DNA from: Actinomycetota bacterium
Lineage (GTDB): Bacteria; Actinomycetota; Actinomycetes; Actinomycetales; Dermatophilaceae
Length of the DNA: 64,000 nucleotides
Assembly (NCBI GenBank): GCA_020161845.1
Contig: JAIUNK010000003.1
Coordinates: forward strand, 62,001 to 126,000
Reading direction: 5' to 3'
Below are positions 13,893 through 25,638 of the stretch, piece after piece. The notes beneath the pieces were generated by a model. The model was not told the origin of the DNA and ran no database searches. It was given only the letters and a program-made list of their open reading frames with translations. The stretch's first letter is position 1. Each line of letters begins with the position of its first letter. Both the position numbers and the translations under genes were made by a program.

Positions 13893-14216
13893 TCAACGCA
13901 GCAAGGGCACAGAGAGGTCGAACGCCAGAACCAGCGCCCTAGCAAGCGAGTCTTCTTGATCGCCGTGAAGAAACCCGATGGTACGCCCGAGATCAGCACC
14001 ATCGATCGTCACGACATTGTCGAGGGAGACGGCGCAGACGTGGTCCAAGCCGTTCTCTGGCCCGACGATCACCTCGCTGGAGAGGCCGCGCACGGTGCCG
14101 GTGATGGGAGCCACCGTCACTTTGGTCATCGCGGCGCGGGCGGCTTCCCGGGTGAGCACCAGCACGGGTCGCGTCTTGTCGAGCCGGGCCAGGCAGATCT
14201 CCCGCACGTCAGTCAT
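13893..14216 (-). CDS. mazF: MazF/PemK-family mRNA interferase toxin
   Basis: This 107-residue protein has the MazF layout: REICLARLDKTRPVLVLTRE at the N-terminus, VTVAPITGTVRGLSSEV in the middle, and LDNVVTIDGADLGRTIGFL near the C-terminus. The PxxPVLVL and APIT elements form the CcdB/MazF barrel. It would cleave single-stranded RNA unless bound by its antitoxin. The ATG at 14216 lies inside the end of the antitoxin gene (8-base overlap), so production is coupled. Confidence 0.88.
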   Translation of the reverse strand: MTDVREICLARLDKTRPVLVLTREAARAAMTKVTVAPITGTVRGLSSEVIVGPENGLDHVCAVSLDNVVTIDGADLGRTIGFLHGDQEDSLARALVLAFDLSVPLLR

Positions 14217-14442
14217 CCATGGTGAAGTTCTTTGCCGTCCAGGCGACGAGATCGTCGAGATCCTGGTCAGGCCCCTGCGCCCGCAGAATGTCCACGTCAC
14301 GCAGCGCAGCCTGGCGACGCATCTCTCGCTCCAGCGCCGTCGCCACGAGGGCTGCCCTGCTCGGGGCCACACCGTCAGCAACGCTGCGGTCGAGAAATGC
14401 GACGACCTCATCGGGGAGGCGCACGGCGATCTGAGTACTCAT
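14209..14442 (-). CDS. Ribbon-helix-helix antitoxin partner of MazF
   Basis: This 77-residue protein opens with the RHH signature MSTQIAVRLPDEVVAFLDRS, followed by a helix ending LERE and an acidic, partly disordered tail (DLDDLVAWTAKNFTMDD) of the kind that wraps the toxin. ATG 14442 is chosen over an upstream in-frame start at 14502 because the RHH strand begins here. A palindromic operator candidate lies just upstream. Confidence 0.85.
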   Translation of the reverse strand: MSTQIAVRLPDEVVAFLDRSVADGVAPSRAALVATALEREMRRQAALRDVDILRAQGPDQDLDDLVAWTAKNFTMDD

Positions 14443-14586: not shown

Positions 14587-15465
14587 CTACGGCTTGGCGT
14601 AGGCGCCCACGTCCAGCATGAACGCGCCGATCTGGGCGCCGAACTCCGGGGCACCCTCCATGATCAGCTTGCCCGCAGCCGTCGATTCGAGCATGTCGTC
14701 GGTGTCCAGCAGGATCCCCAGCGCGGAATCCAGGGTGTCGAAGCGCAGCGTGAAGAACGGCTTGCTGCGCCGGTACTCCCCGCGGGCCGCCTTCGTCCGG
14801 CCCGCCTTGACCCGCAGGTACGCCGCGACCTCCGGATGCCCATCGACCGCCCACGCGTAGACCCGATCGGGGGAGCGGGCGGCCCACGCCGCGATGTTGG
14901 GGTGGCCGGCCTTGTTCAGGCCGCTGATGCCGGCGGACAGCAGCGCGAAGTACATGCGCACCACCAGCACCTTCCTCGCCTCGTCCGGCGGCGGCTCCGT
15001 GGCCCCCAGCAGCGAGGACATGACCAGCAGCGTGCGCAGGAAGGACGCGAACAGCGCGATCCGCCGGGGTGAGCGCAGTCCGCGGATGGCCGGCAGCCGC
15101 TTGCTCGTGCCGCGGAAGAAACCGTTGAACGCCGCCAGCGAACCGAAGCGCAGCTCGACGTCCGGCCTCTCGTACGCCCCGAGCCGCACCTGCACCCCGC
15201 CGTCGATCACGACGAAGTGCACCGCCTGCAGGTCACCCTGGTGGCGCGCTGACACCTGCACGATCCCGTTCTTGCCCCGCCAGGCCGACCGCAGCCCCGG
15301 CTCCTGCTCAGCCAGGATCTTCACCAGCGGCAGGACGCCGCGGAAGAAGACGACGCTGGCGAGCTCGACCTCGCTGGGCTGACCGTTCGGCGCACCTCTC
15401 TCCATACCGTGGTATGAGGGGGGCAGCGGCGAACGGTCCGCAGATCTTGGAGGCGGCGCGGCCAT
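14587..15465 (-). CDS. SCP2-like (sterol-carrier/lipid-binding fold) protein B
   Basis: The predicted cytosolic protein has 292 residues from ATG 15465, which overlaps the stop of the transketolase subunit gene (TGATG). It resembles by eye the other SCP2-like gene of this operon (18752-19522). Both have a hydrophobic N-terminal half with a G-R/K-x-x-P-x-x-R-G element, a shared helix (Y-x-A-L-x-x-x-G), and a C-terminal half in which a small hydrophobic helix ends in a Leu/Ala-rich tail. SCP2-type domains bind lipids or present hydrophobic substrates. No catalytic residues are visible. The family assignment is by pattern and needs profile confirmation. Confidence 0.55.
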   Translation of the reverse strand: MAAPPPRSADRSPLPPSYHGMERGAPNGQPSEVELASVVFFRGVLPLVKILAEQEPGLRSAWRGKNGIVQVSARHQGDLQAVHFVVIDGGVQVRLGAYERPDVELRFGSLAAFNGFFRGTSKRLPAIRGLRSPRRIALFASFLRTLLVMSSLLGATEPPPDEARKVLVVRMYFALLSAGISGLNKAGHPNIAAWAARSPDRVYAWAVDGHPEVAAYLRVKAGRTKAARGEYRRSKPFFTLRFDTLDSALGILLDTDDMLESTAAGKLIMEGAPEFGAQIGAFMLDVGAYAKP

Positions 15466-16475
15466 CAGAACTCGTCGTCCCAGTCGTCGGTGTCCTCGAA
15501 GTCCAGCTTCATCACCTCGCGGACCGAGGCCATGATCCCCGCCGTGTCGAACCCGTGGTAGCTCATCAGGTCCTCGTGCAGCCCGATGGGGGAGAACCGG
15601 TCCTGCAAGCCGAGGCGCCGGAACGCGCACGCCTTGCCGCCCTCGGCGATCACCTCGGCGACCGCGCCGCCCAGCCCGCCCAGCACCGTGTGGTCCTCGA
15701 CCGTGATGATGCGCCGGGTCTCCTGCACGGCGGCCCGGATCGCGTCAGCGTCGATCGGCTTGATCGTGTGCATGTTCAGCACGCGAACGCGGACCCCGTC
15801 CGTGGCCGCCAACTCCCGCGCCGCCTGCAGCGCCTGGAAGACCGCCGACCCGCACGCGATCAGCGTCAGGTCGGTGCCCTCGTGCAGCTGCACGGCCCGT
15901 CCGATTTCGAAGCCGTAGTCCATCGCGTCGTAGACCACCTGGTCGAAGCCGCGGTTGATGCGCAGATACACCGGCCCGAACCGCTCGTACGCCGCGACCA
16001 CCGCATTCGCCGTCTCGATCCCGTCGGCCGGGCAGATTACGGTGAGATTGGCCATCGACCGCATGATGGCCAGGTCCTCGGTGCAGTGGTGGGTCGAGCC
16101 CGCCTGGCCGAAGCTCAGCCCGGCGTGCGAGCCGATCATCTTGACGTTGAGGTTCGGGTAGCAGACGTCGGTGTGCACCTGGTCCAGCGCCCGCATCGAG
16201 TTGAAGATCGCAAAACTGGAGGTGAACGGCACCAGCCCGCAGGCCGCCATCCCCGCCGCCGCGCCGATCATGTTCGCCTCGGCGATCCCGAAGTTGTAGA
16301 ACCGCTCCGGGAAGCGCTCGGCGAACACCCCCACCTTCGTCGACTTCGCCAGGTCCGGGGTCAGCGTGACGATCTCGGGGTGCTCGGCCGCCAGGTCGGC
16401 CAAGACCGTGGCGTAGATCTCCGCCGTCGACAGCTTCGTGGTCTCCTCGACCGTGTAGGTCAACCCGCCGGCCAT
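15465..16475 (-). CDS. Transketolase C-terminal subunit (pyrimidine-binding half)
   Basis: This 336-residue protein equals the Pyr and C-terminal domains of transketolase. The catalytic glutamate that activates thiamine diphosphate is E66 in FGIAEANMIG; GSHAGLSFGQAGSTHHCTED and ICPADGIETANAVV are typical of split transketolases. ATG 16475 follows the N-terminal subunit's stop by one base, so a 1:1 complex is expected. The enzyme would move two-carbon ketol units; donor and acceptor are unknown. Split transketolases of this sort often serve specialised sugar pathways rather than the pentose phosphate cycle. Confidence 0.88.
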   Translation of the reverse strand: MAGGLTYTVEETTKLSTAEIYATVLADLAAEHPEIVTLTPDLAKSTKVGVFAERFPERFYNFGIAEANMIGAAAGMAACGLVPFTSSFAIFNSMRALDQVHTDVCYPNLNVKMIGSHAGLSFGQAGSTHHCTEDLAIMRSMANLTVICPADGIETANAVVAAYERFGPVYLRINRGFDQVVYDAMDYGFEIGRAVQLHEGTDLTLIACGSAVFQALQAARELAATDGVRVRVLNMHTIKPIDADAIRAAVQETRRIITVEDHTVLGGLGGAVAEVIAEGGKACAFRRLGLQDRFSPIGLHEDLMSYHGFDTAGIMASVREVMKLDFEDTDDWDDEF

Positions 16476-16476
16476 G

Positions 16477-17433
16477 TCAGCCCACCCCTCCCGCGGTACG
16501 CACCGGCTCTCCAGTGCTAACACCAGCAAGCGGTACGCCGGGTGCCGGCGCCGCCCCACCCACAGCCCCAGCCGGGGCGTCCACCGCGGCGAGCCGAGCC
16601 GCGGCGTACTCCTCCAGCGCCGCCACACACCGCCCGTGCATGTCCTCGTTGATCGCCCCGTAATGCCAGCGGTAGTCCCCGGCCATGAAGTCGATCCCGT
16701 TGGCCTTGACCGTGTCGGCGACGATGCAGAACGGCCGGCCCGAGCAGACCTTGGCCGCCTCGAACGCCTCGTGCAGCGCGTCGTAGTCGTGCCCGTCGAC
16801 CCGACGTACCTCGAAGCCGAACGCCGCGAACTTGGCGTCGATCGGCTCGATCCCCATCACGTCCTCGGTGGGGCCGTCGATCATGCACCGGTTCCGGTCC
16901 ACGATCACCACGAGGTTGTCCAGCCGGTAGTGGGCCATCGCCATCGCGGCCTCCCAGTTGGACCCCTCGTTGAGTTCGCCGTCGCCGACCACGCAATAGG
17001 TCCGCCAGGACTGGCCCAGCTGTCGCGCCGCCAGCGCCATCCCCAGCGCGATCGACATGCCGTGTCCGAGCGAACCGGTGGACGCCTCGACCCCCGGCAC
17101 CTTCGTCGCATCCAGATGGATCCCGAGCCGCGACCCGGTCAGGTTGAAGGTCCGCAACTCCTCGGCGGGGATCCAGCCCAGGTCGGCGAGCACCCCGACG
17201 TAGGCGACCCCGCAGTGCCCCTTGGACAGCAGGAACCGGTCCCGGGTGGGGTCCGTCGGGTCGGCCGGGTTGACGTGCATCCCGTGGTAGTAGAGGTAGG
17301 TCAGCACGTCGTTGACGCTCAGCCCGCCGCCGAGGTGGGCCGATCCGGCCCAATAGGTCACGTCCACGGTCGACCGGCGCAGCTGCGCGGCCTTGTGCTC
17401 CAGCGCCAGGCGTTCGTCGCGGCTCAGTCCCAT
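16477..17433 (-). CDS. Transketolase N-terminal subunit (ThDP/Mg-binding half)
   Basis: This 318-residue protein has the thiamine diphosphate motif GDGELNEGSNWEA (150-162) with the downstream DRNRC metal-ligand region, plus GSAHLGGGLSVNDVL near residue 30 and LLSKGHCGVAYV near 69. The start ATG at 17433 has a strong GAGGAGG site and lies 10 bases from the aminotransferase stop; an open extension to 17478 is rejected. The last 25 residues are a Pro/Ala/Gly-rich tail. It pairs with the adjacent C-terminal subunit. Confidence 0.88.
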   Translation of the reverse strand: MGLSRDERLALEHKAAQLRRSTVDVTYWAGSAHLGGGLSVNDVLTYLYYHGMHVNPADPTDPTRDRFLLSKGHCGVAYVGVLADLGWIPAEELRTFNLTGSRLGIHLDATKVPGVEASTGSLGHGMSIALGMALAARQLGQSWRTYCVVGDGELNEGSNWEAAMAMAHYRLDNLVVIVDRNRCMIDGPTEDVMGIEPIDAKFAAFGFEVRRVDGHDYDALHEAFEAAKVCSGRPFCIVADTVKANGIDFMAGDYRWHYGAINEDMHGRCVAALEEYAAARLAAVDAPAGAVGGAAPAPGVPLAGVSTGEPVRTAGGVG

Positions 17434-17443
17434 GCCTGCCTCC

Positions 17444-18700
17444 TCAGCCCAGCTCGGGGTGGTTGGCCTTGACGACACCGAACGCCTCGTGCGCCACCTC
17501 GAGGGTGTGCGCGATGTCGGCGTCGGTGACCGCCAGGTTCATGAACAGGTTGTGATGGCTGGTGAAGAACACCCCGCGGCGCACGCACTCGGCGACCCAC
17601 TCCTGGTGCAGGACCAGGTTGTCGTCGTCGGTGATCCGCATGTACCACATCGACGGCTCCCCGGAGATCCGCAGGTCGAAGCCGTGCTCGGCGCCGGCCG
17701 CCCGCAGCCCGTCGGTGAGCGTCCGCCCCAGCGCCAGCATCCGCTGCGCGCCGTTCAGCTCCCGCAGCTTGCGCACGGTCGCGATGCCCGCGGCGAACGG
17801 GACCGCGCTGAGCCAGTACGAGCCGGTGTACATCACCGAACCCGCCGCCGACTTCAGCGACTCCACCCCGACCAGCGCGGACACATTCCAGCCGTTGGCC
17901 AGCGCCTTGCAGTAGCACTGCAGGTCGGCCTCGAAGCCGTAATGCGCGGCCGACCCGCGGTTGTCCAGCCGGAAACCGGCCCGCACGTCGTCGATGGCCA
18001 GCACGATCCCGTTCTCGGTGCACAGCTTGCGCACCTCCGCCCACCAACCCACGGGCGGCAGCTGGTTGTCCTCGAAGATCGGGTGGTGATATGGCGTGGC
18101 CATCAGGATCGCGATCTGACCCTTGTTGGCCTCGATCGTGCGGCGCAGAGCCCCCAGATCACCCCACGGGCAGTAGAGGTTGTTGGACACATCGGCCGCC
18201 GTGATGCCCGGGTGGCCGAGCTTCTGGGTCCACGGCGCCACGCCGTGGTAGTGGCCGTTGAACAGGATCGCCTTGTCCCGGCCGGTCGCCGCGCGGGCCA
18301 CCATCATGGCCAGCGAGGTCGTGTCGCCGCCGTTCTTGGCGAAGAACGCCCAATCCGCCCCGTCGATCGTGTCGCACAGCAGCTCCGCGAACTCGATCAT
18401 CTGCACGGTCGGCAGGGTCGTGCAGTTGCCGGTGTCGAGCTGGGCCCGAGCGGCGGCGTCGACCTCGGGGTCGCCGTAGCCGAGCACGTTCGGCCCGTAG
18501 GCGCACATGTAGTCGATGAACCGGTTGCCGTCGACGTCCCAGACGTAGGCTCCCTGGGCGCGGCTGGCGTAGAACGGATAGCTCGAGACTGGGATGAAGC
18601 ATCCCTCGCTGGGGCCGAGGTGGCCGTAGATCCCGGCGGGGATGACCTGCAGCGCGCGGGCGAACAGGTCGCGGCTGGTCGGGTAGTCATAGGTCTTCAT
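17444..18700 (-). CDS. Class III PLP aminotransferase, glutamate-1-semialdehyde aminomutase-like
   Basis: This 418-residue fold-I PLP enzyme shows YASRAQGAYVWDVDGNRFID near residues 44-63, NGGDTTSLAMMVARAATGR near 123-141, LAIDDVRAGFR with the cofactor aspartate, and the Schiff-base lysine K265 in CYCKALANG. It resembles HemL but lies in no tetrapyrrole context. Its place beside a split transketolase suggests amination of a ketose, aldose or a lipid-linked carbonyl; that is inference. ATG 18700 has an AGG-containing leader, and a 51-base gap separates it from the upstream SCP2-like gene. Confidence 0.82.
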   Translation of the reverse strand: MKTYDYPTSRDLFARALQVIPAGIYGHLGPSEGCFIPVSSYPFYASRAQGAYVWDVDGNRFIDYMCAYGPNVLGYGDPEVDAAARAQLDTGNCTTLPTVQMIEFAELLCDTIDGADWAFFAKNGGDTTSLAMMVARAATGRDKAILFNGHYHGVAPWTQKLGHPGITAADVSNNLYCPWGDLGALRRTIEANKGQIAILMATPYHHPIFEDNQLPPVGWWAEVRKLCTENGIVLAIDDVRAGFRLDNRGSAAHYGFEADLQCYCKALANGWNVSALVGVESLKSAAGSVMYTGSYWLSAVPFAAGIATVRKLRELNGAQRMLALGRTLTDGLRAAGAEHGFDLRISGEPSMWYMRITDDDNLVLHQEWVAECVRRGVFFTSHHNLFMNLAVTDADIAHTLEVAHEAFGVVKANHPELG

Positions 18701-18751
18701 GGGCGGCGACCTTTCGTCGATCCGGCTCGTGGCCAGCTCAGGGCTCGGGGC

Positions 18752-19522
18752 TCAGGCGAGATAGCGGGCGACGATCGCCAGCAGCTTGTTCATGTGGTCC
18801 AGCATCGGGATGTAGCCCGAGACCGCCAGCCGGCCGTCGCCGATGGCGGCGTAGGCGTCCAGCTCGCCGGTCAGGATGCCGCCGGCCGTCTTCAGGGAGT
18901 CGAAGACCATCCGGGCCCGCGCCGTCGCCGCGACGCCCTTCGTGACATTCAGCTGGCCCCCGCGGACGTGGAGCGTCACGCCGGGCCCGCCGGTGATGTC
19001 GACCGCGACGGCGCCGTCGGCCATCCGCGCGGCATTGGCGCGGCCCAGGGTGTCGAGGTTGCCCACCTCCGCGAGGGCGAAGAAGGCCGCGTACGCCGTG
19101 AGCACGGTCGCCAGGCGCTCGTCGTCGGGGGACCGTGGTGCCCCCGGGGCCGGCCGCAGCACCTCTTCCAGGCGCCCCGTCAGCGCCGTGAACTCCTTGG
19201 TCAGGAACCCCAGGCCGCGCCACCCGCGCAGCGGGATGGGCATGCCCTTGCCGGCGATCAGCGCGTTGACATGCGCCGGGCTGACGAAGCCGAGCTGAAT
19301 GTCGGTGTGGCCGGCGGGCAGGGGTCCCGGCCGGGCGCACGCCGTACAGCTGCCGTCGGTGAAGGTGAGCGACAGCGGGCGGATTCCGGGGACCCGGAAG
19401 GTGACCCGGGTGCGTGCGGTCGCCACGATCTGGCGCGCGACCGGGTCGAGCGCGACCAGGTCCTCCAGGTCGCGCAGGACGGCGTGCAGGTTGATGGCCG
19501 CGGCCACCGGTGGTTCGATCAC
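18752..19522 (-). CDS. SCP2-like (sterol-carrier/lipid-binding fold) protein A, first gene of the leftward operon
   Basis: The predicted protein has 256 residues from GTG 19522, which has a GGAGG site; an upstream GTG at 19570 has none. The C-terminal part (ARMVFDSLKTAGGILTGELD, AAIGDGRLAVSGYIPMLDHM) matches the SCP2 pattern of an acidic loop, a G-x-L-x-hydrophobic-x-G strand and a closing helix. The N-terminal half resembles the same fold, so it may be a degenerate duplicated domain. A CxxC pair (C-T-A-C) near residue 62 is absent from the paralogue. It probably binds or presents a hydrophobic substrate. Confidence 0.55.
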   Translation of the reverse strand: MIEPPVAAAINLHAVLRDLEDLVALDPVARQIVATARTRVTFRVPGIRPLSLTFTDGSCTACARPGPLPAGHTDIQLGFVSPAHVNALIAGKGMPIPLRGWRGLGFLTKEFTALTGRLEEVLRPAPGAPRSPDDERLATVLTAYAAFFALAEVGNLDTLGRANAARMADGAVAVDITGGPGVTLHVRGGQLNVTKGVAATARARMVFDSLKTAGGILTGELDAYAAIGDGRLAVSGYIPMLDHMNKLLAIVARYLA

Positions 19523-19650
19523 GGCGTCCTCCCTCCGCGCGGCGTCGCCGCGCACGGATCTCGTCGACACCAGCGTAGCTACTCACCAGTAGCCCTGTCC
19601 GGGACTTTGGTCGGACGTACCGTGATCGGGGGCCGAACCTGTCGAGCCGA

Positions 19651-19716
19651 GCGGGGCCCGATCAGGGCCCGAGCGGGGCCCGAGCGGGGCCCGAGCGGGG
19701 CCCGAGCGGGGGCTGA
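19651..19716. repeat. Six tandem 11-bp repeats in a divergent promoter region
   Basis: The unit GCGGGGCCCGA occurs at 19651, 19662 (variant), 19673, 19684, 19695 and 19706 (variant), followed by a decayed copy. Each unit contains the palindrome GGGCCC. The 11-bp period is close to one DNA turn, so sites would face the same side of the helix. The run lies between the divergent starts at 19522 and 19755 and ends about 26 bases before the ribosome site of the racemase gene. Confidence 0.8.
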
Positions 19717-19754
19717 GCAGGGCATCGACGCGGGACGTCCGGAGAGGAGCACCG

Positions 19755-20834
19755 GTGCATTTCCGCACGCCGCGGCTGGAGATCCACGGCGACCGCATCG
19801 CGGCGAACGCGCGGGCGGTCGTCGATCTCGTGCATGCCCACGGCGGCCGGGTGGCCGGTGTGGCCAAGGTAGCGTGCGCCCACCCCGCCGTGGTCGGCGC
19901 GTTGGTGGCCGGCGGCGTCGATGAGCTGGCGGACAGCCGGATCCTGAATCTGGTGGAGACGGGGGAGCGGGGCACCGGGCTGCGGCAGATGCTGCTGCGC
20001 ATCCCGGCGCCCAGCGCCGCGCCGGACGTCGTCCGGTCCGCCGATGTCACGCTCAACTCGAGCCTGCCCACGCTGCGGGTGCTCGATGCCGCGGCCGGCG
20101 CCGCGGGGCTGCACCACGAGGTGATCGTCATGGTCGACGTCGGCGATCTGCGCGAGGGGGTCTGGCCGGATCGCGCCGTGGACCTGGTCCGCGCCGCGGC
20201 GGACCTGCCGCATCTGGACGTGATCGGGTTGGGGGCCAATCTGGCGTGTTACGGCGGCGTGATCCCCAGCGAGGAGAACATGCGGGCCCTGATCGGGGTG
20301 CGCGACGCCTGCCGGGCCGCGACGGGCTTGGAGCTGGCCACCCTCTCCGGCGGCAATTCCTCCGCATTGCCGCTGCTGGCCGACGGTCGGATGCCCACGG
20401 AGGTCAACCACTTCCGCATCGGGGAGGCGATCGTGCTCGGACGCAACGTGCTGGATCGCCGGCCGTGGCCGGGCACGCGTCAGGACACCTTCCGGTTGGT
20501 CGCCGAGATCGTGGAGCTGGAACGCAAGCCCAGCGTCCCGATCGGCACGCGGGCGCAGAACGCCTTCGGGGAAAGTCCCGACTTCCCGGACCGCGGCCTG
20601 CGCTGGCGGGCGATCGTCAACATCGGCCGGCAGGATGCGGCCATCGAGGGTCTGACCCCGCAGGACGAGGGGGTCCTGCTGGTGGGCGCGAGCAGCGACC
20701 ACCTCATCCTCGACGTCGAGGACGCGGCGGGCGATATCCGGCTCGGCGGCGAGATAGGGTTTTGGCCGAACTACGCGGCGGTGCTGGCGTTGTCGACGTC
20801 CCGCTACGTGCAGAAGGTGGCGATGCGCGGATGA
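19755..20834 (+). CDS. Alanine/ornithine racemase-family PLP enzyme (Orr-like)
   Basis: This 359-residue fold-III PLP protein has the cofactor lysine K38 in GVAKVACAHP, ELADSRILNL, the family-specific GLGANLACYGGVIPSEEN, LSGGNSSALPLL and HFRIGEAIVLGRNVLDR. These are hallmarks of the ornithine/alanine racemase-like group, distinct from canonical Alr. It would racemise or epimerise an amino acid; the substrate is unknown. GTG 19755 has a GAGAGGA site, and its stop overlaps the alr start (ATGA). Confidence 0.85.
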   Translation: MHFRTPRLEIHGDRIAANARAVVDLVHAHGGRVAGVAKVACAHPAVVGALVAGGVDELADSRILNLVETGERGTGLRQMLLRIPAPSAAPDVVRSADVTLNSSLPTLRVLDAAAGAAGLHHEVIVMVDVGDLREGVWPDRAVDLVRAAADLPHLDVIGLGANLACYGGVIPSEENMRALIGVRDACRAATGLELATLSGGNSSALPLLADGRMPTEVNHFRIGEAIVLGRNVLDRRPWPGTRQDTFRLVAEIVELERKPSVPIGTRAQNAFGESPDFPDRGLRWRAIVNIGRQDAAIEGLTPQDEGVLLVGASSDHLILDVEDAAGDIRLGGEIGFWPNYAAVLALSTSRYVQKVAMRG

Positions 20835-22042
20835 CCCCCACCGAAGACCTCGACGCCGCGACGGCGGGCCCGATCGGGCTGCCCCGCGATGAGGATGGCC
20901 GGCCCCTGCTCTATGCCTCGCACGCGGTCGTGCACCTCGACGCCGTCGCCGACAACCTCCGGGCGATCCGGGCGCACGTGGCCCCCGCGCAGGTGCTCCT
21001 GGCGATCAAGGCCGACGGCTACGGCCACGGCGCCATCCCGATCGCGCGGCTGGTTGCGGAGCTGGGCCTGGCGGAGCGGCTCGGCGTCGCGACCCTGCCC
21101 GAGGGGATCGCGCTGCGCGAGGCCGGGATCACCCTGCCGATCCTGAAGTTCACGCCGGTCTTTGCGCACGAGGCGGCGGCCGCCGTCGCCCATGGCATCG
21201 ATGTCACCGTGGTGGACGAAGCGTCATTCCGATGCGTCGAGGCCGCGGCAGCCGCAGCCCACCACCGGGCGGCGGTGCATCTCAAGGTCGACACCGGGAT
21301 GCGCCGGATCGGCTGCGAACCCTCCGACGCGCCCAAACTTGCCGCGATGATCGAGGCCGACGGCCACCACGTGCATCTCGAGGGGATCTGCACGCATCTG
21401 CCGGTCAGCGACACGCCCGAGCAGGACGCCTTCACCGCCGCCCAACTCGCGCGGTTCGCGGCGGTGCGCTCGGCCGTCGAGGCCGTCCTGGGCCGGCGGC
21501 TGCTGGCGCACGCCGCCAATTCCGGGGGGGTGCTGGCGCATCCGTCGTCGTGGCTGGACATGGTTCGTCCCGGGGTCATGGTCTATGGCAGCTACCCCGA
21601 CCCCGCCGTACCGCGAACCGTCCCGCTGCGGCCCGCCCTGTCCTGGCGCTCGCGCGTGGCGTTCGTCAAGCGGGTCGCCACCGGCGAGACGGTCGGCTAC
21701 GGACGCACCTGGACCGCCCCCGCCTCGACCCGCATCGCGACGGTGCCGGTCGGCTACGGCGATGGCTACAACCGGCGCCTGTCCAACCGCGGCCGCGTCC
21801 TCATCGGCGGCCGGTCCTGCCCGATCGTGGGGCGGGTCTGCATGGACCAGCTGATGGTCGACGTCGGCACCGGCGCCCACGTGGCGGTCGGTGACCCGGT
21901 GACGCTCCTGGGCCGCGACGGGGCGGGGCAGATCACCGCGGCCGATCTGGCGGCCTGGCTCGAGACGATCCCCTACGAGGTCACCTGCGCGATCGCGCCG
22001 AGGGTGACTCGGCTGTACGACGGGGGCCCCGGCGAGCCCTGA
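20831..22042 (+). CDS. alr: Alanine racemase
   Basis: This 403-residue canonical fold-III racemase has the PLP lysine K60 in LLAIKADGYGHG, VHLKVDTGMRRIG, and the second-base tyrosine region GYGRTWTAP followed by VGYGDGYNRRLSN and VCMDQLMVDVG. It would supply D-alanine for peptidoglycan or a D-amino acid for the local pathway. Its first 27 residues are an unusual extension. A second racemase immediately upstream, in the same transcript, is atypical and suggests dedicated D-amino-acid chemistry. Whether it is the cell's only alr cannot be judged. Confidence 0.9.
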   Translation: MTPTEDLDAATAGPIGLPRDEDGRPLLYASHAVVHLDAVADNLRAIRAHVAPAQVLLAIKADGYGHGAIPIARLVAELGLAERLGVATLPEGIALREAGITLPILKFTPVFAHEAAAAVAHGIDVTVVDEASFRCVEAAAAAAHHRAAVHLKVDTGMRRIGCEPSDAPKLAAMIEADGHHVHLEGICTHLPVSDTPEQDAFTAAQLARFAAVRSAVEAVLGRRLLAHAANSGGVLAHPSSWLDMVRPGVMVYGSYPDPAVPRTVPLRPALSWRSRVAFVKRVATGETVGYGRTWTAPASTRIATVPVGYGDGYNRRLSNRGRVLIGGRSCPIVGRVCMDQLMVDVGTGAHVAVGDPVTLLGRDGAGQITAADLAAWLETIPYEVTCAIAPRVTRLYDGGPGEP

Positions 22043-22228: not shown

Positions 22229-23722
22229 GTGACCAACCTCGCCCGCCATCTCGCCGCCACTGCCGCCACGCACCCTGAGCGGATCGCGGTGAAGCAGGAC
22301 GAGCAGGCCTACACCTACGCCGAGTTCGAGCACCTGACCCAGATCCTCGCCGGGCACCTGCGGGCCAAGGGATTCGTCCCCGGCGACCGCCTGGCCCTGT
22401 CCCTTCCGAACATCACCGCGTTCCCGCTGGCCTATTACGCCGCGCTGCGCCTGGGCTGCGTGGTCGTCCCGATGAACCCGCTGTTCAAGGCACGCGAGGT
22501 GGAGTATTACCTGCGCGACTCCGGCGCGAAGCTGCTCATCGGGCTGCCGAACCCGGACACCAGCGCGGGGGCCGAGGCGGCCGGGGTGGAGTATTTCGAG
22601 GTCACCGGCCTGCCGCAGCTGCTGGCGACGCCGGTCGAGAAGGTCACCGAGATCGTCGACCGTGACGACGAGGACACCGCGGTGCTGCTCTACACCTCCG
22701 GCACCACCGGGGCACCCAAGGGCGCCGAGCTACGCCACCGCAACCTGAACTCCAACCAGGAGGTGGCCTCGCGCACCCTGCTGGAAGTGACGCCCGAGGA
22801 CACCCTGATGGGGTGCCTACCCCTGTTCCACGTCTTCGGCATGACCGCGGCCATGAATATCGCCGTCGCCACGGGCGCCTGCCTCACCCTCGTGCCGCGG
22901 TTCGACCCCGAGGCGGTGCTGCGCACCATCGAGCGCGATCGGGCGACGGTCTTCCTGGGCGTTCCGACGATGTACGGCGCGCTGCTGGGCGCCCAACCGC
23001 AGGTGCAGGCCGACGTCTCCACGCTGCGCCGGTGCATCTCCGGCGGGGCGTCGCTGCCGGTGGAGTTGATGCGCAAGTTCGAGGCGGCGTTCGACTGCAT
23101 GATCTTGGAGGGCTACGGCCTGTCCGAGACCTCGCCGGTCGCGTCGTTCAATCACCCGCACCTGGAGCGCAAGCCGGGTTCGATCGGCACCCCGATCGAG
23201 GGGGTCGAGATGGACCTGCACAACGAGGACGGCACCCCCACGCCCAAGGGCGAGATCGGGGAGATCGTGATCCGCGGCGACTGCCTGATGCGCGGCTACT
23301 GGAACAAGCCCGAGGCGACCGCGCAGGCCATCCGCGAGGGCGGCTGGTTCTACAGCGGGGACCTGGCCACCCGCGACGACGACGGCTACTACTTCATCGT
23401 GGACCGCAGCAAGGACATGATCATCCGCGGCGGCTACAACGTCTATCCGCGCGAGGTGGAGGAGGTCCTCTACACCCACCCGGATGTCGTGGAGGTCGCC
23501 GTGGTCGGCGTGCCGAACTCGCACCTGGGCGAGGAGGTGGCGGCGTACGTGGTGCTCCGCGAGGGCGCCACGGCCACGGAGGAGGACCTGCAGGCGTTCG
23601 CCAAGGAGCAGGTGGCGGCCTATAAGTACCCGCGGGCCATCCACCTGATCGACGCCCTGCCCAAGGGCGCGACGGGCAAGATCCTCAAGCGCGAGCTGCC
23701 CCGCCCCGCCGTCGGCGACTAG
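22229..23722 (+). CDS. Long-chain fatty-acid--CoA ligase (ANL superfamily)
   Basis: This 497-residue acyl-activating enzyme has P-loop-like LLYTSGTTGAPKGAE near residue 155, EGYGLSETSP near 294, GWFYSGDLATRDDDGYYFIV, DMIIRGGYNVYPREVEE and the catalytic lysine in LPKGATGKILKREL near the C-terminus. It forms acyl-adenylate, then acyl-CoA. GTG 22229 follows a GAGG site; TAACCT at 22188 could be the -10 box. Substrate chain length cannot be told. Its 3' flank is the insertion site of an IS element. Confidence 0.9.
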   Translation: MTNLARHLAATAATHPERIAVKQDEQAYTYAEFEHLTQILAGHLRAKGFVPGDRLALSLPNITAFPLAYYAALRLGCVVVPMNPLFKAREVEYYLRDSGAKLLIGLPNPDTSAGAEAAGVEYFEVTGLPQLLATPVEKVTEIVDRDDEDTAVLLYTSGTTGAPKGAELRHRNLNSNQEVASRTLLEVTPEDTLMGCLPLFHVFGMTAAMNIAVATGACLTLVPRFDPEAVLRTIERDRATVFLGVPTMYGALLGAQPQVQADVSTLRRCISGGASLPVELMRKFEAAFDCMILEGYGLSETSPVASFNHPHLERKPGSIGTPIEGVEMDLHNEDGTPTPKGEIGEIVIRGDCLMRGYWNKPEATAQAIREGGWFYSGDLATRDDDGYYFIVDRSKDMIIRGGYNVYPREVEEVLYTHPDVVEVAVVGVPNSHLGEEVAAYVVLREGATATEEDLQAFAKEQVAAYKYPRAIHLIDALPKGATGKILKRELPRPAVGD

Positions 23723-23776: not shown

Positions 23777-25638
23777 GAGACTGCTGAACAATCCGCGTGG
23801 CGGGGACGGCGTGTGGTGGGGACCTGAAATCCTGCGGTGATGCAGGGTGAGTTGGATCGGCAGCGAGAGTTGCTTGACGTTGAGTCGGTGGCCGGGCACC
23901 TCCTGGAGCCGGGCAGCGTGTTCGCGTTGCTGGCCGAGCATCGTGATCGGTTGTTCCCGAGCGAGTTGTTCGCCGACTTGTTTCCCTCGGGTCGTGGCAG
24001 GCCCTCGATCCCGGGTGAGGTGATTGCTTCGGTGATCGTGTTGCAGGCGCTGTACGGGCATTCGGACCGGGAAGCGGTCGATGCGTTGACCTTCGACCTG
24101 CGGTGGAAGGCGGCGTGTGGGTACGCGATCGACGTCAAGGGTTTCGACCCTTCGACGTTGACCTATTGGCGGCGGCGGTTGGCGGCCAGTGACCGGCCGC
24201 AGCGGATCTTCGAGGTGGTCCGCGAGGTCATCACCGAAACTGGTGCGGTCAAGGGGAAGGCCCGTCGTGCGTTGGACTCCACGATCCTTGATGACGCGGT
24301 CGCCCGGCAGGACACCGTGACCCAGCTGGTCGCTCAGGTCCGTCGGGTTGGCCGCGAGGTGCCTGGCGCCAAGGAGCTGATCGCCACCGTGTGCACCCGG
24401 CTGGCCGCGCTGACCGGTCAGGACTACAGCACGCCGGGGAAGCCGCCGATCGCCTGGGATGACGCGGCTGCCCGCGAGGAGTTGGTGTCCGCGCTGGTGG
24501 GCGACGCCCTCGCTGTGCTCGCTGCGCTGGATGTCGACGCGATCAGCACGGCTGGTGGGAAGCCGGCCGAGGCCCTGGCGCTGTTGGCGCTGGTCGCCGG
24601 GCAGGATGTCGAACCGGCCGAGGACTCCGATGGCACTGATGGCCGGTGGCGGATCGCCCGCAGGACTGCGCCGGATCGGGTGATCTCGACGGTGGATCCC
24701 GAGGCACGGCACGCGCACAAGACCCGGGAACGCCGTCAGGACGGGTTCAAGGCCCATGTGGTCGTTGAGCCTGACACCGGCCTGACCACCGTGTGCGCGT
24801 TGACCAAGACCAACGGTGCTGAGAACTCCGACGCCACCGTGGGCGCCGAACTCGTCGTCGCCGACTCCACCATCACCGCGGACCAGCACCTCGACGAGCC
24901 CATCGAGGTACCTGTCGAGGTGTTGGGCGACTCGGCCTACGCCAGCGGCGACATGCTCCACACCCTGAAGCAGAAGAGCTGGATACCGCTGGTCAAGCCG
25001 TGGCCGACCAGGCCGGCCGTCGAGGGCGGCTTCACCATCGACGACTTCACCTACGACACCGCCACCGACACGCTGACCTGCCCCGGCGATGTCACCCGGA
25101 GTCCTTCATCGAAGGGGACCGTCACCTTCGGTGCCGCCTGCCGTGGCTGTCCGCTGCGCGAGCAGTGCACGACGGCAGCATCAGGACGCACGGTGTACCT
25201 CGGCAAGCACCACCAACTGCAACGCGAGCACCGGCAGCGAGCCGCCGACGAAGGCTTCCAGGCCCTCTACCGACGCCATCGGCCGATGGTCGAACGCTCG
25301 ATCGCCTGGCTCACCCGAGATGCTCGCCGGGTGCCCTACCGCGGAGTCGAGAAGAACAACAACTGGCTCCACCACCGCGTCGCCGCTCTCAACCTGCGCC
25401 GACTCCTGGCCCTGGGCCTCACCGTCCAGAACGGAACCTGGGTCCTGGCCTGAACTGGCCCCGCAGGGGCCTTGCCGGCCCCTGAGCCACATCGCGCACG
25501 GTGAGGCACAGGCGGGCGCAACGACCCCGTTGTCCCACCAGCGCGCTGACTCAAACTCGCCGCTCGACGGCCTTGGCGGCGTTCCGCCCGCCGCCCACGC
25601 CATCACTCACCCCAGGCAACGCCTTCTTCAGCAGTCTC
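23777..25638 (+). mobile_element. IS1182-family-like insertion sequence, complete
   Basis: The 1862-bp element has perfect 12-bp terminal inverted repeats (GAGACTGCTGAA at 23777-23788 and its complement at 25627-25638), continuing imperfectly inward. It is flanked by CTAG at 23773-23776 and 25639-25642, a palindromic 4-bp duplication typical of this family. One full transposase gene fills it. The intact ends, target duplication and reading frame indicate a recent, possibly active insertion. It separates the acyl-CoA ligase gene from the DrrA-like gene without breaking either. Confidence 0.93.
23837..25453 (+). CDS. IS1182-family transposase
   Basis: This 538-residue DDE transposase has the N-terminal DUF772-like region (FPSELFADLFPSGRGRPSIP, ALYGHSDREAVDAL), a central RRALDSTILDDAV with the first catalytic aspartate, a KTRERRQDGFKAHVVVEPDT segment, and VEVLGDSAYASGD with a second aspartate. 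A zinc-like cysteine cluster (CRGCPLREQC) follows, then MVERSIAWLTRDARRVPYRG with the catalytic glutamate. GTG 23837 is followed at once by an ATG, either of which may start. No frameshift or stop is present. Confidence 0.93.
   Translation: MMQGELDRQRELLDVESVAGHLLEPGSVFALLAEHRDRLFPSELFADLFPSGRGRPSIPGEVIASVIVLQALYGHSDREAVDALTFDLRWKAACGYAIDVKGFDPSTLTYWRRRLAASDRPQRIFEVVREVITETGAVKGKARRALDSTILDDAVARQDTVTQLVAQVRRVGREVPGAKELIATVCTRLAALTGQDYSTPGKPPIAWDDAAAREELVSALVGDALAVLAALDVDAISTAGGKPAEALALLALVAGQDVEPAEDSDGTDGRWRIARRTAPDRVISTVDPEARHAHKTRERRQDGFKAHVVVEPDTGLTTVCALTKTNGAENSDATVGAELVVADSTITADQHLDEPIEVPVEVLGDSAYASGDMLHTLKQKSWIPLVKPWPTRPAVEGGFTIDDFTYDTATDTLTCPGDVTRSPSSKGTVTFGAACRGCPLREQCTTAASGRTVYLGKHHQLQREHRQRAADEGFQALYRRHRPMVERSIAWLTRDARRVPYRGVEKNNNWLHHRVAALNLRRLLALGLTVQNGTWVLA

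What the first reader, a model, noticed from the sequence alone, without database searches (positions are those of the whole stretch)
14587..22042. Divergent locus pairing a split transketolase, aminotransferase and two racemases with two SCP2-like proteins
The leftward arm is SCP2-like A, class III aminotransferase (K265), transketolase N and C subunits (with E66 and GDG motif) and SCP2-like B. The rightward arm is an Orr-like racemase and alr. Neighbours overlap or are within 10 bases, except the 51-base gap after SCP2-like A, so each arm reads as an operon. Two-carbon transfer plus amination plus D-amino-acid formation, bracketed by lipid-binding-fold proteins, would fit an aminated sugar or polyol attached to a hydrophobic carrier. 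I know of no described system with this set. The SCP2 assignment rests on pattern.
Basis: partly seen in the sequence, partly recalled or inferred. Interest (0 to 1): 0.78.

Follow-up and report, generated by a model that had tools for sequence, protein, structure and literature searches.

The report
Possible fat-breakdown operon using a transketolase
A compact five-gene operon, conserved in scattered bacteria, pairs an aminotransferase and a split transketolase each with its own lipid-carrier-like protein, and may take apart (or build) the long-chain amino-alcohols at the core of sphingolipids by a route that has not been described as far as I could find.

Summary
The left arm is real and conserved: SCPB–AT–TkN–TkC–SCPA. 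All five genes are present in 46 of 84 loci (same genus, other Actinomycetota, Clostridia, a Spirochaete); SCPB abuts AT in 80, and SCPA follows TkC in 50 of 52. Both SCP proteins are homologous tandem SCP2 folds by AlphaFold and Foldseek, though the window copies fall below Pfam's cut-off. The racemases do not belong to the unit. AT's closest solved relative is FumI, which deaminates a sphinganine analogue. The transketolase keeps its catalytic residues, but every copy examined has lost the R91–D469 salt-bridge pair and gained aromatics at 262, 361 and 466. A minority of loci carry TetR, aldehyde dehydrogenase or ene-reductase genes; in two actinobacterial samples the module co-occurs with ceramidase, in Clostridia it does not. 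Best reading: sphingoid bases are deaminated to long-chain 1,3-dihydroxy-2-ketones; transketolase then passes C1–C2 to a sugar phosphate and frees a fatty aldehyde, with SCP2 proteins carrying the lipids. The reverse (biosynthesis) is not excluded. No step is shown biochemically. The rows listed by ten literature searches show no such pathway.

The parts
18752..19522 (-). SCPB: tandem SCP2-fold protein (256 aa), proposed carrier partner of the aminotransferase
   Evidence: AlphaFold model pLDDT 93.7; Foldseek matches to SCP2 proteins and alkylsulfatases, prob 1.00; immediately upstream of AT in 80 of 84 loci; Pfam SCP2 below cut-off in the window copy
17444..18700 (-). AT: class III (GSAM-like) PLP aminotransferase, catalytic K265; proposed sphingoid-base transaminase
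   Evidence: Pfam Aminotran_3; best solved relative FumI 6hbs 326.9 bits vs 156.1 for the next, a GSAM; 5-sequence profile 376.7 vs 196.6
16477..17433 (-). TkN: ThDP-binding half of a split transketolase
   Evidence: Pfam; best solved relative 6yak N-chain; H26, H66, H100, H261, D155, N185 kept; R91->N and G262->Y
15465..16475 (-). TkC: pyrimidine-binding and C-terminal half of the split transketolase
   Evidence: Pfam; best solved relative 6yaj C-chain; E411, H461, H473, S385, R520 kept; D469->A, R358->A, L466->F, S361->Y
14587..15465 (-). SCPA: tandem SCP2-fold protein (292 aa), proposed carrier partner of the transketolase
   Evidence: AlphaFold model pLDDT 89.5; Foldseek matches to SCP2 proteins and alkylsulfatases; present in 50 of the 52 loci with TkC, the other two running off the contig

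Best explanation
A catabolic route for sphingoid bases (2-amino-1,3-diols such as sphinganine or sphingosine) that needs neither sphingosine kinase nor sphingosine-1-phosphate lyase. (1) Inferred: free base, released by ceramidases or taken from the surroundings, is lifted from the membrane by SCPB and presented to AT. AT moves the 2-amino group to a keto acid and leaves a long-chain 1,3-dihydroxy-2-ketone, in effect a ketose with a fatty tail. (2) Inferred: SCPA presents this ketone to the TkN/TkC enzyme. Its thiamine diphosphate cuts the C2-C3 bond, releases a fatty aldehyde, and hands the two-carbon ketol unit to an aldose phosphate, so the head group enters the pentose phosphate pathway. 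(3) Inferred, with linkage in a few genomes only: the aldehyde is oxidised by a class-3 aldehyde dehydrogenase, and the 2-enal expected from sphingosine is reduced by an ene-reductase. Shown here: operon conservation, SCP2 folds, catalytic residues, invariant specificity-residue changes, linked genes, co-occurrence. Not shown: any substrate, product or direction.
For: Conserved order in distant bacteria. AT nearest to FumI among solved structures; FumI moves the C2 amino group of a 2-amino-3-hydroxy long-chain compound to pyruvate (PMC2933618, passages). Transketolase, over the 60 TkN and 59 TkC sequences complete enough to align: H26, H66, H100, D155, N185, H261 in 60/60; E411, H473 in 59/59; R91 lost in 60/60, D469->A in 59/59, R358 lost in 58/59; G262->Y, S361->Y, L466->F in every copy. 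In E. coli transketolase D469T removes the R91 salt bridge and is the first step of a series evolved towards non-polar aldehydes (PMC5073344, passages). SCP2 folds of both partners; top Foldseek hits include SdsA1 entries solved with 1-dodecanol or 1-decane-sulfonate. Extended operons: VOC in 10 of 84 loci plus 8 of 8 further loci from the family of the Trueperella genome G072, TetR in 8 of 84, class-3 ALDH downstream in 3, ALDH divergent upstream in 2, FadH/OYE-like in 3. L084's ALDH matches fatty aldehyde dehydrogenase 4qgk (379 bits, sixth best). Ceramidase: of 151 genomes in the family of G072, 9 of 10 SCPB-positive and 2 of 141 SCPB-negative have a full-length copy. The SCPB-AT pair occurs without the TkN-TkC-SCPA block (25 of 72 well-flanked loci; no SCPA found in 31 such genomes), as expected if AT acts first.
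Against: No biochemistry. The window's own genome has no ceramidase; of 31 further genomes, mostly Clostridia, none has a full-length one (10 have partial matches over the cut-off). The ceramidase association may be clade inheritance; the Fisher tests are not corrected for phylogeny. FumI-like aminotransferases also sit in quite different operons, and the two plasmid ones tested score higher against FumI than AT does. S385, H461 and R520, recalled as phosphate contacts, are kept; the evolved non-polar-aldehyde variant had changed S385 and R520. The linked enzymes' nearest NCBIfam models are not lipid enzymes: L041/L046/L084 ALDH nearest benzaldehyde dehydrogenase MdlD (below its cut-off), L055's ALDH passes the succinic semialdehyde dehydrogenase cut-off, the OYE nearest bile-acid and bilirubin reductases (below cut-off). 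These genes are linked in few loci and not in the window. Stereochemistry (recalled): ordinary transketolase makes and uses 3S ketols, whereas D-erythro bases would give the 3R ketone. SCPB-AT-only genomes need another fate for the ketone. TkN-TkC-SCPA without AT would have been missed by the AT-led scan.
Confidence: 0.42

Rival explanations
1. The same chemistry runs forward: a serine-palmitoyltransferase-independent synthesis of a sphinganine-like base. Transketolase adds a two-carbon ketol to a fatty aldehyde, AT aminates the 2-ketone, and the SCP2 proteins carry the hydrophobic intermediates.
For: Both reactions are reversible in principle. A transketolase-transaminase pathway to amino-alcohols has been built in E. 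coli, and (2S,3S)-2-aminopentane-1,3-diol has been made this way (two titles in the reference list of PMC5073344). Many module loci have no linked regulator or transporter by eye.
Against: TetR, aldehyde dehydrogenase and ceramidase links fit breakdown better, where present. SCPB-AT occurs without transketolase. Distribution is sporadic: SCPA in 1 of 396 genomes of the window's phylum, the window's own; SCPB in 2 of 291 genomes of the class of the Oscillibacter genome G073, one of them the anchor. I recognised no acyltransferase or head-group gene among the 45 largest neighbour clusters (by eye).
Confidence: 0.15
2. One reading: the enzymes make an aminated sugar or polyol attached to a hydrophobic carrier lipid that the SCP2 proteins handle.
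For: Transketolases and GSAM-like aminotransferases commonly act on sugars or small aldehydes (recalled); S385, H461 and R520 are kept. AT relatives sit near carbohydrate kinases and class II aldolases. A glycosyltransferase-like cluster occurs in 3 of 84 loci (by eye).
Against: R91 and D469 are lost and aromatics gained in every copy, R358 in 58 of 59. No sugar-transfer or carrier-lipid gene recurs beyond those 3 loci among the listed clusters (by eye). The racemases are not part of the unit.
Confidence: 0.16
3. Detoxification or remodelling of other long-chain amino-alcohols (fumonisin-like mycotoxins, 1-deoxysphingolipids, other lipid amines), sphingolipids being incidental.
For: FumI is the nearest characterised relative with a solved structure. 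Many hosts of the module are gut MAGs by record title.
Against: Transketolase needs a 1-hydroxy-2-ketone, which hydrolysed fumonisin (its 2-keto product is an icosane-2-one without a C1 hydroxyl) does not give.
Confidence: 0.1

Closest known systems
FumI, aminopentol aminotransferase of Sphingopyxis sp. MTA144 (PDB 6hbs/6hbv)
   Same: Class III PLP fold; best solved-structure match by a factor of about two in bits; acts on a 2-amino-3-hydroxy long-chain compound (PMC2933618 passages)
   Different: AT scores 326.9 bits against 6hbs, while two plasmid aminotransferases score 448 and 588, so AT is a more distant group; percent identity to FumI was not computed. In six plasmid regions around such relatives no gene is annotated as SCP2 or transketolase (that annotation is incomplete)
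Split transketolase of Carboxydothermus hydrogenoformans (PDB 6yaj/6yak)
   Same: Two-chain architecture; best solved match of both halves
   Different: In the printed alignments it keeps the EDG (D469) and FRK (R91) motifs, which the module enzymes have lost; no SCP2 partner is known to me (recalled)
Engineered transketolase + transaminase pathway to amino-alcohols (Ingram 2007; Smith 2010, titles only, in the reference list of PMC5073344)
   Same: Same two reactions, giving 2-amino-1,3-diols
   Different: Artificial, short-chain, synthetic direction, no lipid carriers (recalled beyond the titles)
Sphingosine kinase + sphingosine-1-phosphate lyase route (recalled)
   Same: Same overall task, cutting sphingoid bases at C2-C3 to a fatty aldehyde that is then oxidised
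   Different: That route phosphorylates first and releases phosphoethanolamine; this one would deaminate first and pass the two carbons to a sugar phosphate
SCP2-type domain of alkylsulfatase SdsA1 (PDB 2cfu/2cfz)
   Same: Top Foldseek hits; an enzyme that works on long alkyl chains and carries an SCP2-type domain (the domain assignment is recalled)
   Different: Fused to the enzyme there; here separate tandem-SCP2 proteins, one per enzyme

Membership tests
SCP2 (PF02036) for SCPA and SCPB | Score over Pfam's gathering cut-off (21.3 bits) | tested here: not met
   Window copies 17.6 and 19.1 bits, 19.4 for trimmed SCPB; the best homologue reaches E 1.1e-8. I therefore call them SCP2-fold proteins, not Pfam SCP2 members
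SCP2 (PF02036) for SCPA and SCPB | SCP2 fold | tested here: met
   Confident models, Foldseek probability ~1.00 to many solved SCP2 structures
SCP2 (PF02036) for SCPA and SCPB | Binds lipids | not testable with these tools
   No binding data
Transketolase (EC 2.2.1.1) | ThDP and catalytic residues (E. coli H26, H66, H100, D155, N185, H261, E411, H473) | tested here: met
   60 of 60 TkN and 59 of 59 TkC; G156 of the GDG motif is Ala in 2 of 60
Transketolase (EC 2.2.1.1) | Residues R91, R358 and D469 of the sugar channel | tested here: not met
   Lost in 60/60, 58/59 and 59/59; S385 (58/59), H461 and R520 (59/59) kept
Transketolase (EC 2.2.1.1) | NCBIfam equivalog score | tested here: inconclusive
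   245 and 260.8 bits for the two halves against NF004559 with cut-off 488 for a whole chain
FumI-type aminopentol aminotransferases | Class III fold with Schiff-base lysine and closest solved match to FumI | tested here: met
   K265 invariant in A2; FumI is the best solved match
FumI-type aminopentol aminotransferases | Falls inside the FumI clade | tested here: inconclusive
   326.9 bits to FumI vs 448 and 588 for two plasmid relatives points to a sister group; no tree was built
FumI-type aminopentol aminotransferases | Deaminates sphinganine-like substrates | not testable with these tools
   Needs enzyme assay
Glutamate-1-semialdehyde aminomutase (HemL) | NCBIfam equivalog score | tested here: not met
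   183 bits vs cut-off 527.3 for TIGR00713
Sphingolipid catabolism via S1P lyase | Sphingosine kinase and S1P lyase genes in the genome | not tested
   Not searched; only ceramidase PF04734 was

The most novel reading that the evidence does not exclude
Bacteria from several phyla carry a transketolase-based pathway for sphingoid bases: a dedicated aminotransferase turns the base into a 'fatty ketose' and a lipid-adapted split transketolase trades its head group into the pentose phosphate pathway (or the reverse, making sphinganine from fatty aldehyde and sugar phosphate). Each enzyme is served by its own tandem SCP2 carrier, so sphingolipid and sugar metabolism are joined directly.
Probability: 0.55. 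Interest if true: 0.92.

Novelty: categorically new. Interest (0 to 1): 0.8.

Why it matters
If true, it is a new way to cut, or make, the sphingolipid backbone without kinase, lyase or serine palmitoyltransferase. It would suggest how scattered gut and host-associated bacteria use ceramide-derived bases, give SCP2 folds a bacterial role as enzyme-specific lipid shuttles, and show that nature already has the transketolase-transaminase pairing that chemists assembled for amino-diols. It makes specific, easily assayed predictions.

Tried and rejected
Racemases as part of the system: rejected. tblastn of Orr and Alr found neither in L011-L014 and only Orr in L018 and L021 among the 80 loci, there beside genes that cluster with the ornithine aminomutase genes of L011. 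The window genome has an OAM alpha gene on another contig and a second alr.

FadD-like ligase at 22229 as a partner: rejected. Not found in L011-L014; matches near the module in L025, L111, L115 and L116 are 24-31% identical, and in L111, L115 and L116 they sit beside a gene that I read as valS.

Conserved neighbours beyond the block: none general. The commonest other cluster is ABC-transporter ATPases (18 of 84 loci, any position), the rest occur in 9 or fewer; VOC, TetR, OYE and ALDH only in subsets. Gene calls for these clusters came from a simple ORF script of mine, and ALDH matches weaker than E 1e-15 were not looked at. The partial PF04734 matches in Clostridia were not counted as full ceramidases.

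TkN-TkC-SCPA elsewhere in 31 genomes whose AT locus showed no transketolase (some of these loci end near a contig edge): 8 weak SCPA-profile matches, E 1e-7 to 6e-5; by their coordinates all 8 lie on the SCPB gene of the locus.

Solved-sequence search with the SCP profiles gave nothing useful. Literature: ten searches; I judged the listed titles and abstract starts only, and several lists were capped (15 of 292, 12 of 69, 25 of 197). Passages, not whole papers, were seen of PMC5073344, PMC2933618 and PMC9858248. The FumI characterisation paper PMC3136697 is not held, so whether FumI uses sphinganine is unknown to me.

Not done: no phylogenetic tree, no phylogeny-corrected test, no search for S1P lyase or serine palmitoyltransferase, no cavity analysis, no signal-peptide test of the ceramidases.

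Full report
What is there. Window 14587-19522 (- strand) holds five tightly packed genes in the order SCPB, AT, TkN, TkC, SCPA. Pfam and NCBIfam give a class III aminotransferase of the glutamate-1-semialdehyde-aminomutase type, far below the HemL equivalog score, and the two halves of a transketolase. The + strand arm is an ornithine-racemase-like protein and an alanine racemase. The window genome has four other places that match Transketolase_N, among them one long open frame and two pairs of halves, so this split enzyme is an extra copy.

Conservation. SCPA was found in 5 of 58 related genomes: the window's own, three of the same genus and one of another family of the order. Their loci show the same order; in two of them SCPB is not adjacent. 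Adding L011-L014 gives 84 loci (L014 and L081 have the same map and contig length and are probably one genome): 46 hold all five genes, and SCPB abuts AT in 80. The misses are L012 and L013, L072 at a contig edge, and L070, where the clustering does see SCPB. TkC is present in 52, and SCPA with it in 50; the other two (L019, L042) run off the contig. Of 72 loci with at least 900 bases before and 3,500 after AT, 43 are five-gene, 25 SCPB-AT only, 2 lack SCPB, 1 is AT alone by BLAST, and 1 (L075) has the order TkC-SCPA-SCPB-AT. Record titles are Clostridia and other Bacillota, Spirochaetes, Actinomycetota and one Myxococcota. The system is rare: SCPA in 1 of 396 evenly drawn genomes of the window's phylum, the window's own, and SCPB in 2 of 291 genomes of the class of the Oscillibacter genome G073, one of them the anchor and the other a partial match.

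Two cassettes. SCPB goes with AT, SCPA with the transketolase. In 31 genomes whose AT locus showed no transketolase, the only SCPA-profile matches are 8 weak ones that coincide with SCPB itself. So each enzyme appears to own one SCP2-type protein. The two SCP proteins are paralogues.

SCP2 relation. Sequence alone is weak: window copies are under Pfam's cut-off; 6 of 50 and 25 of 76 homologues match at E<=0.01. Structure prediction from alignments of 50 and 76 sequences is confident. Foldseek finds many solved SCP2 proteins and alkylsulfatases, some of the latter solved with a C10 or C12 alkyl compound. The order of helices and strands repeats twice in each model, so each looks like a tandem SCP2.

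Aminotransferase. Its best solved relative is FumI (6hbs), 326.9 bits against 156.1 for the next; with the 5-sequence profile 376.7 against 196.6. FumI moves the C2 amino group of hydrolysed fumonisin B1 to pyruvate (PMC2933618, passages); fumonisins resemble sphingosine and sphinganine (PMC9858248, passages). Against over-reading this: 14 plasmid records hold aminotransferases 36-42% identical to AT, the two tested score higher against FumI than AT does, and the six regions read have other neighbours.

Transketolase. Aligned with E. coli TktA (L099), the 60 TkN and 59 TkC sequences complete enough to use keep H26, H66, H100, D155, N185, H261, E411 and H473 without exception; G156 is kept in 58 of 60. 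R91 is Asn or Ser in 60 of 60 and D469 is Ala in 59 of 59. In the E. coli enzyme these two form a salt bridge that D469T removes, in a series evolved towards non-polar aldehydes (PMC5073344, passages). R358 is lost in 58 of 59. G262 and S361 are Tyr and L466 is Phe in all. S385 (58 of 59), H461 and R520 (59 of 59) are kept; the evolved variant had changed S385 and R520, so the likeness is partial. Controls in the window genome: the long-frame transketolase L001 keeps R91, R358 and D469; the split pair L002 keeps R91 and D469 (R358 not covered); the pair L003 lacks all three and has Tyr for H26, so it is a different enzyme. I read the module enzyme as one that still meets a sugar phosphate on one side of its ping-pong cycle but has a hydrophobic partner on the other.

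Linked genes. Downstream on the same strand: a VOC protein in 10 of 84 loci and in 8 of 8 further loci from the family of the Trueperella genome G072; TetR in 8 of 84; an FMN ene-reductase/FadH-like enzyme in 3; class-3-type aldehyde dehydrogenases in L041, L046 and L084. Divergent aldehyde dehydrogenases lie directly upstream in L023 and L055. With two aldehyde dehydrogenase queries at E<=1e-15, none was seen further out in the stretches held, up to 10 kb a side. The L084 enzyme matches class-3 enzymes, fatty aldehyde dehydrogenase 4qgk included (379 bits, sixth best). But its nearest NCBIfam model is a benzaldehyde dehydrogenase (below cut-off), L055's enzyme passes the succinic semialdehyde dehydrogenase cut-off, and the ene-reductase is nearest to bile-acid and bilirubin reductases, below cut-off.

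Ceramidase (PF04734). In 25 genomes with the module (5 of them with SCPB-AT only), 10 have a match, 8 over the cut-off, and 6 a full-length one (E<1e-100): three same-genus species, Vallitalea, Arcanobacterium and Trueperella, not the window's genome; control 0 of 14. In 31 more (25 with the transketolase block, 6 with SCPB-AT only), none is full-length; 10 have partial matches over the cut-off, all among the 25. Among 58 relatives, 3 of 5 module genomes and 3 of 53 others have a match, one of the latter only a 158-position piece (Fisher p 0.006). Among 151 genomes of the family of G072, SCPB is in 10, full-length ceramidase in 11 (17 with any match), both in 9 (Fisher p 6e-12). Neither test allows for shared ancestry. 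In G213 the ceramidase gene lies 5.3 kb upstream of the module on the same strand, with other genes between.

Mechanism. Sphingoid base -> (SCPB-AT) long-chain 1,3-dihydroxy-2-ketone -> (SCPA-TkN/TkC) fatty aldehyde plus a ketol unit on an aldose phosphate -> fatty acid. Every chemical step is inferred. Direction leans to breakdown because of the regulator, dehydrogenase and ceramidase links and because AT can occur without the transketolase; the latter argument is limited by the AT-led sampling. Synthesis by the reverse is the main rival. An open chemical question (recalled): ordinary transketolase is selective for 3S ketols while D-erythro bases give 3R, so altered selectivity at the R91/D469 site, or the VOC protein as an epimerase, would be required.

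Racemases. They are not in the loci L011-L014. Orr turns up beside the module in L018 and L021 next to genes that cluster with the ornithine aminomutase genes of L011; L011 itself has 2,4-diaminopentanoate dehydrogenase and D-ornithine aminomutase genes at that place. The window's Orr is best read as a relic or relative of that neighbour, not of the lipid module.

Comparison and novelty. The parts belong to known folds. The assembly, one tandem SCP2-fold protein per enzyme with a residue-shifted split transketolase and a FumI-related aminotransferase, did not appear in the rows listed by ten full-text searches, which cover open-licence papers only. The engineered transketolase-transaminase route to amino-diols (titles in the reference list of PMC5073344) is the closest thing in chemistry.

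Noticed in passing
window 19755-22042; L011:15122-18884; L018:11539-16312; L021:15480-20612: Ornithine-fermentation genes (Orr, OraS/OraE, diaminopentanoate dehydrogenase) adjoin the module in an actinobacterium, a Spirochaete MAG and a Vallitalea MAG, which hints at joint transfer of two unrelated catabolic sets. Pfam was run on the L011 genes and L018's Orr; the rest is by clustering.
   Followed up: partly
L125:8119-11263 (Novosphingobium plasmid): A close FumI relative (588 bits to 6hbs) sits between a class II aldolase and a carbohydrate kinase, as if the deaminated product were phosphorylated and cleaved like a ketose: a possible parallel route.
   Followed up: partly
L124 and L127 (Shinella, Agrobacterium plasmids): A FumI-like aminotransferase lies with a four-carbon acid sugar kinase, class II aldolase, acyl-CoA dehydrogenase and alpha-ketoacid dehydrogenase genes; function unknown.
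   Followed up: no
window 13896-14411 (-): A PemK/MazF-like toxin-family protein (E 4.4e-9) lies directly downstream of SCPA.
   Followed up: no
window 23837-25453 (+): ORF that looks like an IS transposase, beyond the acyl-CoA ligase gene; my reading of the sequence, no profile search.
   Followed up: no
L002 and L003 (window genome contigs C16, C26): Two further pairs of transketolase halves in the same genome; L003 has an in-frame stop in its N half and an altered active site (Y for H26).
   Followed up: partly
L024 and L027 (Paenibacillus): Two-gene form SCPB-AT preceded directly by what looks like an amino-acid permease gene (by eye), with no SCPA found in the genome: a possible shorter pathway.
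   Followed up: partly
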